Origin: a virus
IMG/VR virus record: IMGVR_UViG_3300030104_005486
Span: 1 to 30,122 of that record
DNA length: 30,122 nt
Direction: 5' to 3' (one strand)
Below the pieces are notes generated by a model, which was given only the letters and a program-made list of their open reading frames with translations, had not been told where the DNA came from and made no database searches. Each line of letters begins with the position of its first letter. Position 1 is the first letter of the stretch. This document shows positions 18,377 to 22,975 of the stretch, piece after piece. Both the position numbers and the translations under genes were made by a program.

Positions 18377-18988
18377 TTATTCCTTATCTGCGATTGTGTT
18401 ATCGTCTTGTTGTATTTGTTCCATTGCACTCAGTTCGTTTTTCATTGATTCCATCTGTGCTTTCCTTTTTGCTTTTTCTAATGCTTCACTCCAATCAGGT
18501 ATCGCGGGTGCCGATTGTTCTGCCAACATCTTTTGGGCCATATCTACGAACCTATTGGTTGATTTGGTCTTGTCGTGGTATGCAACCCTTGTCCCCAATT
18601 CCATTTTATAGCCGTAAAGTTTACCTGCCAAATGAGTTGCCATTTCTTCAGGTATGTCCATACCTTTCAAAGTTTCGATCAGTGTCAAAGGTGAGTTCTT
18701 GTTAATCAGTTCAACAAGATCTTTATCAATTGACCATATGTAACTTCTATCGGCAGAACTCACAGTGAGTTTTTTTAGATATTCAAAACCAGTTATGATG
18801 GTCAGTAATCTTCCAACCACTTTGTTGTCTGTTTTACCTGTAACTAATTTTGGTGTTATGATTCTCTGTGACACGCCCACGTCATCATCTAATTGTGATT
18901 TTGTCTTGATCTTGATGTTACCTGTGATTGCCACTGAATAGTCATTTTTGTCAAACGTACATAATGTATATATTGTTGCTGTTGCCAT
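18377..18988 (-). CDS. Hypothetical protein, first gene of leftward operon
   Basis: A 203-residue protein. ATG 18988 has AAAAAGGAA upstream. The first half has beta-like segments (TIYTLCTFDKNDYSVAITGN, RIITPKLVTG). The middle includes LLTIITGFEYLKKL and a helical portion with GMDIPEEMATHLAGKLYGYK. The C-terminal 60 residues are an Ala/Glu/Lys/Gln-rich helix likely to form a coiled coil. It is separated by one base from the downstream leftward gene. I do not recognise a family. Single-strand annealing or repressor functions are conceivable from position alone. Confidence 0.65.
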   Translation of the reverse strand: MATATIYTLCTFDKNDYSVAITGNIKIKTKSQLDDDVGVSQRIITPKLVTGKTDNKVVGRLLTIITGFEYLKKLTVSSADRSYIWSIDKDLVELINKNSPLTLIETLKGMDIPEEMATHLAGKLYGYKMELGTRVAYHDKTKSTNRFVDMAQKMLAEQSAPAIPDWSEALEKAKRKAQMESMKNELSAMEQIQQDDNTIADKE

Positions 18989-19020
18989 TGTTTAAATTCC
19001 TTTTTGTTGAGTTTTAATTA

Positions 19021-19050
19021 TTTATGTTTATTTTAATATTTTACGGTCAA
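19021..19050 (-). promoter_or_regulatory. Candidate promoter of leftward operon
   Basis: On the minus strand TTGACC (19045-19050) and CATAAA (19021-19026) are 18 bases apart, about 33 bases before ATG 18988. The -35 matches 5/6 and the -10 4/6. Alternative -10 registers exist in this AT-rich leader. Confidence 0.4.
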
Positions 19051-19089
19051 ACGGCTGAAATATACGACCTTTTTGTTTGCCACTTTTGT

Positions 19090-19119
19090 TTGAGGGGTAA
19101 AAACAGGGTTTTATATAAA
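19090..19119 (+). promoter_or_regulatory. Secondary rightward promoter candidate
   Basis: TTGAGG (19090-19095), 18 bases, TATAAA (19114-19119). It lies upstream of the better promoter at 19147-19176 and would start transcription near 19126. Confidence 0.3.
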
Positions 19120-19146
19120 TACAAATATAGAAGGAAAATTATGTTA

Positions 19147-19176
19147 TTGACTTTTTCAAGCACAATGCGTTACAAT
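19147..19176 (+). promoter_or_regulatory. Strong sigma-70-type promoter for the non-coding RNA
   Basis: TTGACT (19147-19152) and TACAAT (19171-19176) are 18 bases apart; each hexamer matches 5/6 of consensus. The predicted start is about 19182-19185, a few bases before the arm CCACTGT (19189-19195) that can close the following structured region. It is among the best promoter matches I saw in the window. Confidence 0.65.
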
Positions 19177-19182
19177 TAGATA

Positions 19183-19197
19183 TTAACCCCACTGTAT
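19183..19197 (+). repeat. 15-bp repeat, copy at 5' end of the non-coding RNA
   Basis: TTAACCCCACTGTAT is identical to 21324-21338, the last codons of the methyltransferase gene. The copies bound a 2.1-kb block of RNA, small genes and methyltransferase. A match this long somewhere in 30 kb is not very unlikely by chance, so any link to cassette movement is speculative. Confidence 0.5.
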
Positions 19198-19647
19198 CCT
19201 TCGCTAAGACGGTTTAAAGGTGGGATTATAGGCACGATAACCAAGGCAATTACAGGCTCACATAGGCGATATACTCTCCCAACAAAAACGGAAACTACTC
19301 TGTAACAACAGCGGCGAATTCCAAGAGAGATGTGGTGTTGCATTATCAACAATAGACAGATGCTATGAACACGCAGTCACCTGAAAGTGTTCTTAAAAAT
19401 CGATACAGTATGGTAAGGATAAAGAGCCAAAGCAGAATACTGTCTATAAAAACTGTTTCACCCGTAGCAGGGTGACCTATTGGCCAAATGAAAAACACTA
19501 TCCCACTTATCAATTAGAGAGATACTTTAACAACGAGTGACAACGAGTTGTTAGGCCAAACGTAGTTTGTGCCTGACCATACCACCAAAGAGATTGGCAA
19601 AATCAATGGTCGCATCTGACCAAATCAATTTGCTATAATCAAGTTAT

Positions 19648-19706
19648 GGCGTCAGGCAGATATCTCTATTAGGTCATAATCTCTGTTTGATGCCACTCCA
19701 TTTTTT
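19648..19706 (+). terminator. 3' stem and T-tract of the non-coding RNA
   Basis: GGCGTCAGGCAGA (19648-19660) pairs with TCTGTTTGATGCC (19682-19694) over 13 continuous base pairs, three of them G-T, with a 21-base loop. Six bases later come six T's (19701-19706). The gap before the T's is longer than ideal, so this may be a weak terminator or a 3' processing stem. Part of the stem competes with pairing to 19571-19577. Confidence 0.5.
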
Positions 19707-19786
19707 ATGAAATATATAATTGCTATCACAGTGGTGCATTTGTTGTTTGGGATATATCTGTATCTTTATCTTCAATAAATATTTGT

Positions 19787-20107
19787 ATGAGATCAGGAAG
19801 GCCACAGAACCCGGTAGTCAAGTCAAAGACAGATCACAAGGGATACGAGATCCAATTGCAGTCAGTGGATCAGGTGTACCAACTCACATATGATCACCGG
19901 ATCGCGTTGATCAGGTCAGACAGGAAAGTGATCAACTGTGGTTTCAAGTACGTCAAGACCTGTTGGAGCACCAGAGCCAGTGCCATCAATGCGGTCCGCA
20001 AATACAACCGGTTCTACAACACCACCCAGTTTGGTTTCATTGAGGTTGATATGTTCGGCAATCCAGAACAAGGAGTAGCCATATGGCCAAAGTCAAAGAA
20101 CAAATAA
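19787..20107 (+). CDS. Hypothetical protein (106 aa) after the non-coding RNA
   Basis: A 106-residue basic protein. The sequence mixes strands and aromatics (YEIQLQSVDQVYQLTYDHR, VINCGFKYVKTCWSTRASA, YNTTQFGFIEVDMFGN) and ends KSKNK. ATG 19787 lacks a clear ribosome site, so the start is uncertain and translation may be weak or controlled by the upstream RNA. Base composition is higher in G+C than the virion genes. The next small gene starts inside its 3' end, with AAGGAG provided by this gene, suggesting coupling. No family recognised. Confidence 0.55.
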   Translation: MRSGRPQNPVVKSKTDHKGYEIQLQSVDQVYQLTYDHRIALIRSDRKVINCGFKYVKTCWSTRASAINAVRKYNRFYNTTQFGFIEVDMFGNPEQGVAIWPKSKNK

Positions 20108-21419: not shown

Positions 21420-22640
21420 CTATTCCTCAAACAATTCTGAATATTGTGTGTCTAATATCTTGAAGTCCACACTATCTTCATCCAAAGCAACCACTTTGTT
21501 CTTAGCAAGTAGTGGTACGACATTACTATAATGTTCTTCAATCATCTTGACTGAAGTTCCACATTGTGAAGCGATGAGATCTGACGTGACACCTGCCAAC
21601 AATCTGTTTGTGATATATGTATGCCTCAAACTGTACACAGAATATGACGCACCTGTGATGGGTTCAATCTTCATATTGTTCCTTACCAACAAGTTATCAA
21701 AACCTTCATCAAAACTTTTATGGTTGGGCCAAAACTTATCAGTTAGATCAACACCAAGTTTTTGATATTTCTTGATGTGCTTTTTTATTACATCATAAAC
21801 ATCGGGCATAAACACGGCAGTACGTTTGTGTGATCTCTTACCTGAAATAGTTTTAGTTTTCTCAAGCAATTGAACAGCAAAAGTTTTTCTCGTCTTGCCT
21901 TTTTGTTTGACTGTGATTTCACTCAAATGTTTTAGACCTATACTTGCGAGTTCGCCTGATCTACTACCACAGGCCAACATCATTCTAATATAGGTATAGA
22001 GATCTTCTCTTTTAGATCTTATGCTTGAATTCTTTTCTCTTTCAAAACTGTTCCTTGCCAACACGATCAATTTCTTATCCAACCCATTTATGAAAGCAGG
22101 TCGTCTCTGTGATTCAACTTTGAACTTGGGGAACTCAGGTATTTCTACTTTTCTGATATATCCAGTTGCCACACAAAATTTATAGAAGTTCATCAAATAA
22201 ACAAGTTCATTGTGTATGGTTGAACTTGTTGGTATTTTCTTCTGCGGTGTTAACACAGTCTTACGCCACTCTAACCAATTTTGCAGATCTTGTTCTTGGA
22301 CTTCTTTTATCTGCTTGGATCCAAATTGGAATAAAAAGTATTTGGTGAAACCATTTTTATATTGTCTATATTTCTTGTCTTTGAATTCACTTCTAATGTA
22401 CTTTTCCCAATCAACAAATATTGTAGAGAACTTTGGTGACTTTTCTAAAGTGCCACCTTGCTTGACTACCAAACGTAGATCATCAAACTTTGAATATGCG
22501 ATTGACTTGGCAGTTTCTAAATCAGATGTGCCACAAGTTTCTCTGATAAGTGTACGATCAACTTTTAATTTCATATGCCAATTGTGTCCTCTCTTAACAA
22601 GAGTGATGGCACCGTCATTTAGTTTAACATTGTTTAACAT
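21420..22640 (-). CDS. int: Tyrosine recombinase integrase
   Basis: A 406-residue protein with start at ATG 22640, chosen because AAAGGA lies seven bases upstream; an upstream in-frame ATG at 22745 would overlap the promoter. The N-terminal 60 residues hold an arm-binding-like segment, 75-165 the core-binding SAM-like domain, and the rest the catalytic domain. Active-site residues: Arg227 in CGSRSGEL, Lys near 261-263 in LEKTKT, Arg339-His340 in YSLRHTY (the first His of HxxRH is Tyr, a tolerated variant), and nucleophile Tyr371 in EEHYSNV. It inserts phage DNA by recombining attP with a host tRNA gene. A same-strand tRNA-Asn lies 260 bases upstream and is the obvious attachment site. Confidence 0.95.
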   Translation of the reverse strand: MLNNVKLNDGAITLVKRGHNWHMKLKVDRTLIRETCGTSDLETAKSIAYSKFDDLRLVVKQGGTLEKSPKFSTIFVDWEKYIRSEFKDKKYRQYKNGFTKYFLFQFGSKQIKEVQEQDLQNWLEWRKTVLTPQKKIPTSSTIHNELVYLMNFYKFCVATGYIRKVEIPEFPKFKVESQRRPAFINGLDKKLIVLARNSFEREKNSSIRSKREDLYTYIRMMLACGSRSGELASIGLKHLSEITVKQKGKTRKTFAVQLLEKTKTISGKRSHKRTAVFMPDVYDVIKKHIKKYQKLGVDLTDKFWPNHKSFDEGFDNLLVRNNMKIEPITGASYSVYSLRHTYITNRLLAGVTSDLIASQCGTSVKMIEEHYSNVVPLLAKNKVVALDEDSVDFKILDTQYSELFEE

Positions 22641-22688
22641 TGTATATCCTTTTCTACCAAAGCCAGCACAAGCAATAGGAAACAAAAA

Positions 22689-22705
22689 TTGTGCTGACTT
22701 TGTGC
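22689..22705 (+). repeat. Pair of TTGTGC repeats upstream of integrase
   Basis: TTGTGC at 22689-22694 and 22700-22705, 11 bases apart, about one helical turn. The same motif and spacing recur at 22870-22890. This suggests binding by one protein, probably integrase arm-type sites or an excisionase/repressor. Confidence 0.5.
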
Positions 22706-22719
22706 TTATATTATAGCAC
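22702..22719 (-). promoter_or_regulatory. Extended -10 promoter of integrase within an inverted repeat
   Basis: On the minus strand TGCTATAAT occupies 22710-22718, a perfect extended -10, 70 bases before ATG 22640, with no good -35. The arms GTGCT (22702-22706) and AGCAC (22715-22719) form an inverted repeat overlapping the -10. A protein bound there would block transcription, so self-regulation by Int or control by a repressor is plausible. Confidence 0.55.
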
Positions 22720-22869
22720 ATTTTTGAAATTTGTATACCTGACAAAACCTAAGAAAACAGCGGTTTTTTTAACTAATTTTGCCTATTTTTTTGATGACGG
22801 CTTATTTTAACAGAAAAACCATTCATCTACAAATGGCGGAAAACAGCGAAATAATTTTGTGTTTTTTTG

Positions 22870-22890
22870 TTTGTGCCAACTTTGTGCCAA
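22870..22890 (+). repeat. Tandem TTTGTGCCAA repeats beside tRNA-Asn
   Basis: TTTGTGCCAA at 22870-22879 and 22881-22890, exactly 11 bases apart, ten bases from the tRNA 3' end. Direct repeats with helical-turn spacing next to the presumed core are typical of attP arm sites. Confidence 0.6.
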
Positions 22891-22899
22891 AAAAAATAT

Positions 22900-22975
22900 T
22901 GGCTCCGCGGACTGGACTCGAACCAGTGACCCTCTGATTAACAGTCAGATGCACTACCAACTGTGCTACCGCGGA
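22900..22975 (-). tRNA. tRNA-Asn (anticodon GTT), complete with CCA; probable attP locus
   Basis: Read leftward: acceptor TCCGCGG (22975-22969) pairs with CCGCGGA (22910-22904), D stem GCAC/GTGC around AGTTGGTA, anticodon stem TCTGA/TCAGA with loop CTGTTAA (anticodon GTT), five-base variable loop, T stem ACTGG/CCAGT with loop TTCGAGT, discriminator G and encoded CCA (22902-22900). All stems are perfect. It resembles proteobacterial tRNA-Asn. A phage usually carries only the 3' part of its target tRNA; the whole gene here means either that integration leaves two functional copies or that the tRNA serves the phage. Which part is the crossover core cannot be told without the host junction. Confidence 0.95.

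What the first reader, a model, noticed from the sequence alone, without database searches (positions are those of the whole stretch)
19147..19706. Free-standing large structured RNA in a compact phage genome
Seen: 800 bases without a gene (18989-19786); a sigma-70 promoter (TTGACT, 18-base spacer, TACAAT) whose start point falls just before the arm CCACTGT, which can pair with ACAGTGG at 19728-19734; many nested hairpins; a 9-bp long-range helix 19218-19226/19500-19508; and a 13-bp terminal stem followed by six T's. Known: phages carry large ornate RNAs such as GOLLD and ROOL, often in prophages and near tRNAs. Inference: this is an independent RNA gene of about 520 nt, a new class or a divergent member of a known one. 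Caveat: around eight perfect 7-bp pairings are expected by chance in this length, so single helices prove little.
Basis: partly seen in the sequence, partly recalled or inferred. Interest (0 to 1): 0.85.

Follow-up and report, generated by a model that had tools for sequence, protein, structure and literature searches.

The report
New large structured phage RNA gene
A stretch of an uncultured marine virus that looked empty of genes encodes a roughly 530-letter structured RNA; relatives of it occur in many uncultured bacterial viruses but in no cultured phage record searched, and its job is unknown.

Summary
The interval 19183-~19710 is an independent RNA gene of a small, podovirus-like phage with an integrase. 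Rfam 15 does not recognise it. A covariance model built only from 18 freshwater-type relatives finds the window (30.9 bits, E 1.3e-4) and about 87 further loci, on contigs from 4 kb up to 372 kb. Covariation is decisive. In the core, 90% of cells pair, against 37-45% when partners are slid. There are 588 two-sided changes against 167 in shuffles. Three helices cross others (pseudoknots). The window's own marine clade shows the same (89% against 27-38%). Freshwater members also carry a 5' domain with its own covariation. That domain's invariant hairpin recurs in at least 120 viral stretches with other middle modules. In nine of those loci it falls inside the Rfam motif Polynucleobacter-1, so that 141-nt motif is probably a fragment of a modular superclass of large phage RNAs. 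No match was found in 50,697 GenBank phages, and only four of the bacterial genomes examined have one. Function is unknown. The best clue is a 3' strand that pairs either with its own hairpin or with the P1 loop: a switch, or assembly of copies.

The parts
19147..19176 (+). sigma-70-type promoter, TTGACT-18-TACAAT
   Evidence: TTGACA-18-TACAAT in L002, TTGACT-TATAAT in L012 and TTGACA-18-TACAAT in L048
19183..19710 (+). RNA gene (both ends inferred: start from the promoter, end from the terminal stem)
19188..19224 (+). 5' hairpin, 19188-19192 with 19220-19224; two compensatory changes in L002
19229..19266 (+). four AGGC repeats of the 5' leader (19230, 19244, 19254, 19264)
   Evidence: AGGC enriched in leaders of relatives, 37 against 9.0 in shuffles
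19336..19351 (+). hairpin TGTTG-CATTAT-CAACA, conserved in the marine clade
19352..19447 (+). P4: 19352-19359 with 19440-19447, plus 19362-19363 with 19432-19433
19367..19392 (+). P1: 19367-19372 with 19387-19392
   Evidence: 98-100% of cells paired, two-sided changes
19376..19381 (+). strand a (GTCACC) in the P1 loop; pairs with strand d at 19471-19476
19393..19401 (+). conserved unpaired UUAAAAAUC (its invariance is partly imposed by the search pattern)
19403..19420 (+). pseudoknot PK: 19403-19404 with 19419-19420
19406..19455 (+). P2: 19406-19409 with 19452-19455; crosses P4 (pseudoknot)
19411..19429 (+). P3 hairpin UGG[UAAGGAUAAAGAG]CCA
19459..19476 (+). competing hairpin c.d: 19459-19463 with 19470-19474; strand d is 19471-19476
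19648..19694 (+). terminal stem, 13 bp, followed by T6 at 19701-19706
   Evidence: a 12-bp stem is visible in the L003 sequence
18377..18988 (-). upstream neighbour, unknown protein of 203 aa, divergent to the RNA
19787..20107 (+). downstream neighbour, unknown protein of 106 aa
20222..21340 (+). DNA methyltransferase
21420..22745 (-). integrase
22900..22975 (-). tRNA-Asn (gtt) near the integrase

Best explanation
Shown by computation: a free-standing phage RNA gene with its own promoter-like site and a compact core of crossing helices, belonging to a previously undescribed, modular superclass of phage RNAs. Inferred: it is a structural (architectural) RNA made during infection, working in the manner of GOLLD and ROOL. 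Copies assemble with each other, possibly with a phage or host partner. The 3' strand d, held near-isoenergetically either by its own hairpin arm c or by the P1 loop a, is the exchange point: pairing a.d within one molecule closes the core, and pairing a.d between neighbours would bridge copies. The stated confidence is for the assembly or strand-exchange mechanism; I put the existence of the RNA class at about 0.97.
For: Covariation in the core and in the window's marine clade. The model built without the window recovers it. The P1-loop region contains a 6-mer whose exact reverse complement lies downstream in 64 of 71 homologues, against 27.9 +/- 3.8 with partners swapped; about eleven different 6-mers are involved, mostly at +76 to +79 or +111 to +140. 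The alternative hairpin partner c of the same strand averages 1.06 G.U and 0.2 mismatches per 6 bp and equals a in only 8 of 62; mean computed energies are -12.8 (hairpin) and -11.9 kcal/mol (a.d). Size, ornate pseudoknotted fold and phage context resemble GOLLD and ROOL, which form RNA-only cages with intermolecular bridges, one of them first seen as covariation (PMC12286853). Flanking genes vary, so it is not the leader of one gene. Promoter-like sites are enriched upstream (>=10 of 12 in 30% against 6.6% of shuffles).
Against: No transcript or biochemistry. Competing helices could be an intramolecular switch with no assembly. The a.d 6-mers were picked as exact matches, which biases toward imperfect c.d, and homologues are related, so the swap test is not a probability. 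No consistent association with tRNA arrays (a few loci only). Near relatives without a detected integrase also show no RNA, so it is accessory.
Confidence: 0.38

Rival explanations
1. Trans-acting regulator or sponge: exposed repeats (AGGC leader, and in relatives the twin words CUC-X-AA / AUCU-X-AA) bind a host RNA or protein, and the pseudoknotted core only stabilises the RNA.
For: AGGC repeats enriched in leaders. In 32 of 71 homologues two words flanking the 3' hairpin carry the same 3-5 nt X, with 10 different X, and X has no complement within the RNA beyond chance, as expected if its partner lies elsewhere.
Against: The window itself seems to have only one such word; most covariation lies in folding, not in exposed parts; no target identified.
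Confidence: 0.27
2. Intramolecular RNA switch or ribozyme: the pseudoknotted core with near-invariant loops is a catalytic or ligand-binding centre and a/d/c strand exchange is the switch.
For: Crossing helices P2 x P4, PK x P2 and P1-loop x K, each covarying; balanced competing helices.
Against: No consistent downstream gene, so not a riboswitch; no match to Rfam ribozymes or introns.
Confidence: 0.17
3. Packaging-motor RNA or another virion-associated RNA.
For: Found mainly in viruses; one homologue (L092) lies directly before a small terminase gene.
Against: Other homologues have unrelated neighbours; relatives with about 80% identical large terminase (L007, L010, L014) show no core match in the DNA held.
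Confidence: 0.07
4. Long 5' leader or chance folding of an AT-rich gap.
For: The 106-aa ORF follows at 19787.
Against: Covariation; unrelated downstream genes in homologues; a terminal stem before the ORF.
Confidence: 0.04

Closest known systems
Polynucleobacter-1 RNA (RF01718, Weinberg 2010, PMC2864571)
   Same: Its 141-nt model matches, above the gathering score, nine viral loci that carry the same invariant 5' hairpin as freshwater relatives of the window, and one core-bearing relative below it (L016, 30.6 of 37 bits).
   Different: Listed as a motif of Burkholderiales and fresh water; here it looks like the 5' domain of large viral RNAs. The window does not match it, and loci above its gathering score have a different middle module.
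GOLLD RNA
   Same: Large, ornate, phage-encoded RNA with one conserved region and one less conserved region.
   Different: No Rfam match in any scan; not recognisably the same sequence or helices.
ROOL RNA
   Same: Large pseudoknotted phage RNA of similar length (ROOL env-120 is 659 nt), unknown function.
   Different: No Rfam match; tRNA islands near only a few members.
OLE and HEARO RNAs
   Same: Large ornate bacterial RNAs.
   Different: No Rfam match; different hosts and context.

Membership tests
GOLLD | match to its Rfam covariance model | tested here: not met
   window; relatives
GOLLD | homo-oligomeric nanocage | not testable with these tools
   needs cryo-EM; known for GOLLD from PMC12286853
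ROOL | match to its Rfam covariance model | tested here: not met
ROOL | location near tRNA islands | tested here: inconclusive
   only a few of 51 loci have tRNA arrays; the window has one tRNA 3.2 kb away
Polynucleobacter-1 (RF01718) | match at or above gathering score 37 | tested here: not met
   window: none even at E 10; relative L016 30.6 bits
Polynucleobacter-1 (RF01718) | shared 5' domain in relatives of the window's class | tested here: met
   the 22-mer AATCCRTTCTGATGTGTGAYGG occurs both in core-bearing loci (L018, L031, L037, L039, L040, L041, L045, L047) and in loci above RF01718 gathering; the window itself lacks it
tmRNA, tRNA, introns and ribozymes in Rfam | match to Rfam model or ARAGORN | tested here: not met
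This new class (core model R1) | match to the R1 core model built without the window | tested here: met
   window 19352-19466, 30.9 bits, E 1.3e-4
This new class (core model R1) | discrete transcript | not testable with these tools
   no expression data held

The most novel reading that the evidence does not exclude
A modular superclass of large phage RNAs, common in uncultured viruses and missing from the cultured phages searched, shares a 5' domain and (in several types) a 3' twin-repeat hairpin, swaps its middle modules, and self-assembles through an evolutionarily balanced strand exchange. It would be a further architecture of RNA-only phage machinery beside GOLLD and ROOL.
Probability: 0.33. 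Interest if true: 0.95.

Novelty: new variant of a known kind. Interest (0 to 1): 0.85.

Why it matters
Only a handful of large ornate RNA classes are known, and GOLLD and ROOL turned out to form RNA cages of unknown purpose. A further class, with covariation strong enough to fix its core fold, modular variants and well over a hundred natural sequences, gives a comparative handle on what such RNAs do for phages. It also explains an orphan Rfam motif (Polynucleobacter-1) as a probable fragment of something much larger.

Tried and rejected
The apparent duplication in contig 3300030328_002956 (L002/L003) is probably a scaffold gap between two variants. A cis partner for the twin word X was sought and not found. 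blastn against GenBank phages with representatives of several types gave nothing beyond chance; plasmids gave nothing. RF01718 in 251 genomes of the Limnohabitans relative's family found nothing, but its control did not ring, so it shows nothing. The 22-mer is absent from 369 genomes of the same class. No paper on Polynucleobacter-1 beyond its first listing was found, and none holding the invariant hairpin; the library lacks most subscription papers. The T run after the terminal stem is not conserved in L003, so it is not claimed as a terminator.

Full report
What is there. The window is a whole virus record of 30,122 bases with a major head protein, large terminase, a DNA methyltransferase, an integrase and a tRNA-Asn. 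Between a leftward 203-aa ORF and a rightward 106-aa ORF lie about 800 bases without a gene. A promoter-like site ends at 19176, and 19183-19740 folds better than all 100 shuffles (z -3.5). Rfam 15 has no meaningful match in this stretch, even with E up to 10.

Relatives. Proteins of the window brought in neighbours of the same phage group. Two keep the locus: contig 3300030328_002956 (L002/L003, 85-87% identity) and the much more distant L012, where the RNA sits directly beside the integrase. Both keep the promoter. Comparing the three already showed compensatory changes. A degenerate pattern from the core found 96 viral stretches, of which about 70 distinct ones are real, on contigs up to 372 kb. 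Three bacterial genomes also carry it: a Limnohabitans isolate, a beta- and an alphaproteobacterial MAG. A further genome of the class of the alphaproteobacterial MAG matches the core model. It is rare in bacteria (1 of 399 genomes of the Limnohabitans relative's order, that one being the relative itself). No GenBank phage matched beyond chance.

Caution on bias. UUAAAAAU, GGUAAG and AGAGC were required by the pattern, so their invariance is not evidence. The covariation below concerns other positions, except part of P3, whose inner two pairs are fixed by the pattern.

Structure of the core. A model from 18 freshwater-type sequences (R1), without the window, recovers the window at E 1.3e-4 and about 87 others. 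On 73 distinct rows the proposed 32 pairs give 90.3% paired cells, against 37-45% when partners are slid by 1-3 columns; two-sided changes number 588, against 167 +/- 10 in shuffles; 30 of 32 pairs show them. That alignment was fitted to P1, P3 and P4, so their counts lean towards the structure; P2, PK and the P1-loop helix were not in the model and covary as well. The fold is P4 enclosing P1, a linker and P3, with P2 crossing P4, a short pseudoknot from the linker into the P3 loop, and the P1 loop pairing after P2. Nine marine sequences, including the window, aligned by MAFFT without any structure, give the same result: 89.1% against 27-38%, and 33 two-sided changes against 10.5. One window-type difference: the P1 loop there pairs with the hairpin arm at +78, not with a separate strand directly after P2.

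A contested strand. The P1 loop (strand a) has an exact 6-nt reverse complement (strand d) downstream in 64 of 71 homologues, against 27.9 +/- 3.8 when partners are swapped. Strand d is usually also the 3' arm of a hairpin whose 5' arm (c) resembles a but typically carries a wobble pair. The two alternatives have similar computed energy. I read this as a maintained strand exchange. Whether it happens within one molecule (switch) or between copies (assembly) cannot be told from sequence.

The larger picture. Freshwater relatives carry a 5' domain with its own covariation (85.6% against 27-48%; 157 two-sided changes against 59; the last helices are poorly aligned). Only 8 of 72 new loci have the window's core by R1; most of the rest have other middles, though a few are cut off by contig ends. 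Nine loci match Polynucleobacter-1 above its gathering score. A 3' hairpin flanked by twin words is shared between loci of the window's class and loci with the other middles (27 of 71 and 42 of 78, against less than 1 expected from shuffles). So RF01718 appears to be one domain of a modular superclass. The window has a reduced 5' part; its relation to that domain is not shown.

Function. Neighbours differ from locus to locus: nucleotide cyclase, desaturase, rubrerythrin, peroxiredoxin, homing endonucleases, small terminase. This argues for a separate RNA gene. By size, ornate fold and viral home it resembles GOLLD and ROOL, which form RNA-only cages, but it fails their sequence tests. I favour an assembling structural RNA at about 0.38, a trans-acting binder at 0.27, and a switch or ribozyme at 0.17.

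Noticed in passing
L086, L044, L069, L055, L035, L042, L037 (downstream of the core): In 32 of 71 homologues two words flanking the 3' hairpin, CUC-X-AA and AUCU-X-AA, carry the same X (AGCA, AGCG, AGAU, AACA, ACAU, GCAU and others), with no complement inside the RNA beyond chance. Identity that co-varies in this way is unexplained (the search asked for identical X, but ten different X occur).
   Followed up: partly
L024, L039, L044, L046, L081: A predicted CHASE2 plus nucleotide-cyclase protein (Pfam-tested in L024; similar-length ORFs in the others) is encoded after the RNA in several phage contigs; an unusual phage cargo.
   Followed up: no
L026, L051, L062, L064: Phage contigs with the RNA also carry a permuted or betaproteobacterial-type tmRNA.
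   Followed up: no
L132, L133, L139, L160, L161: The invariant 22-mer hairpin sits in a quite different, conserved sequence context in another group of contigs, possibly another RNA type.
   Followed up: no
window 21420-22975: Integrase near a tRNA-Asn, also in several relatives (L004, L009, L011, L013); likely attachment site. Near relatives without a detected integrase (L007, L010, L014) show no RNA core in the DNA held.
   Followed up: partly
L110:2713-2817: Sub-threshold match to the Rhizobiales sRNA Atu_At1 (49.2 of 60 bits).
   Followed up: no
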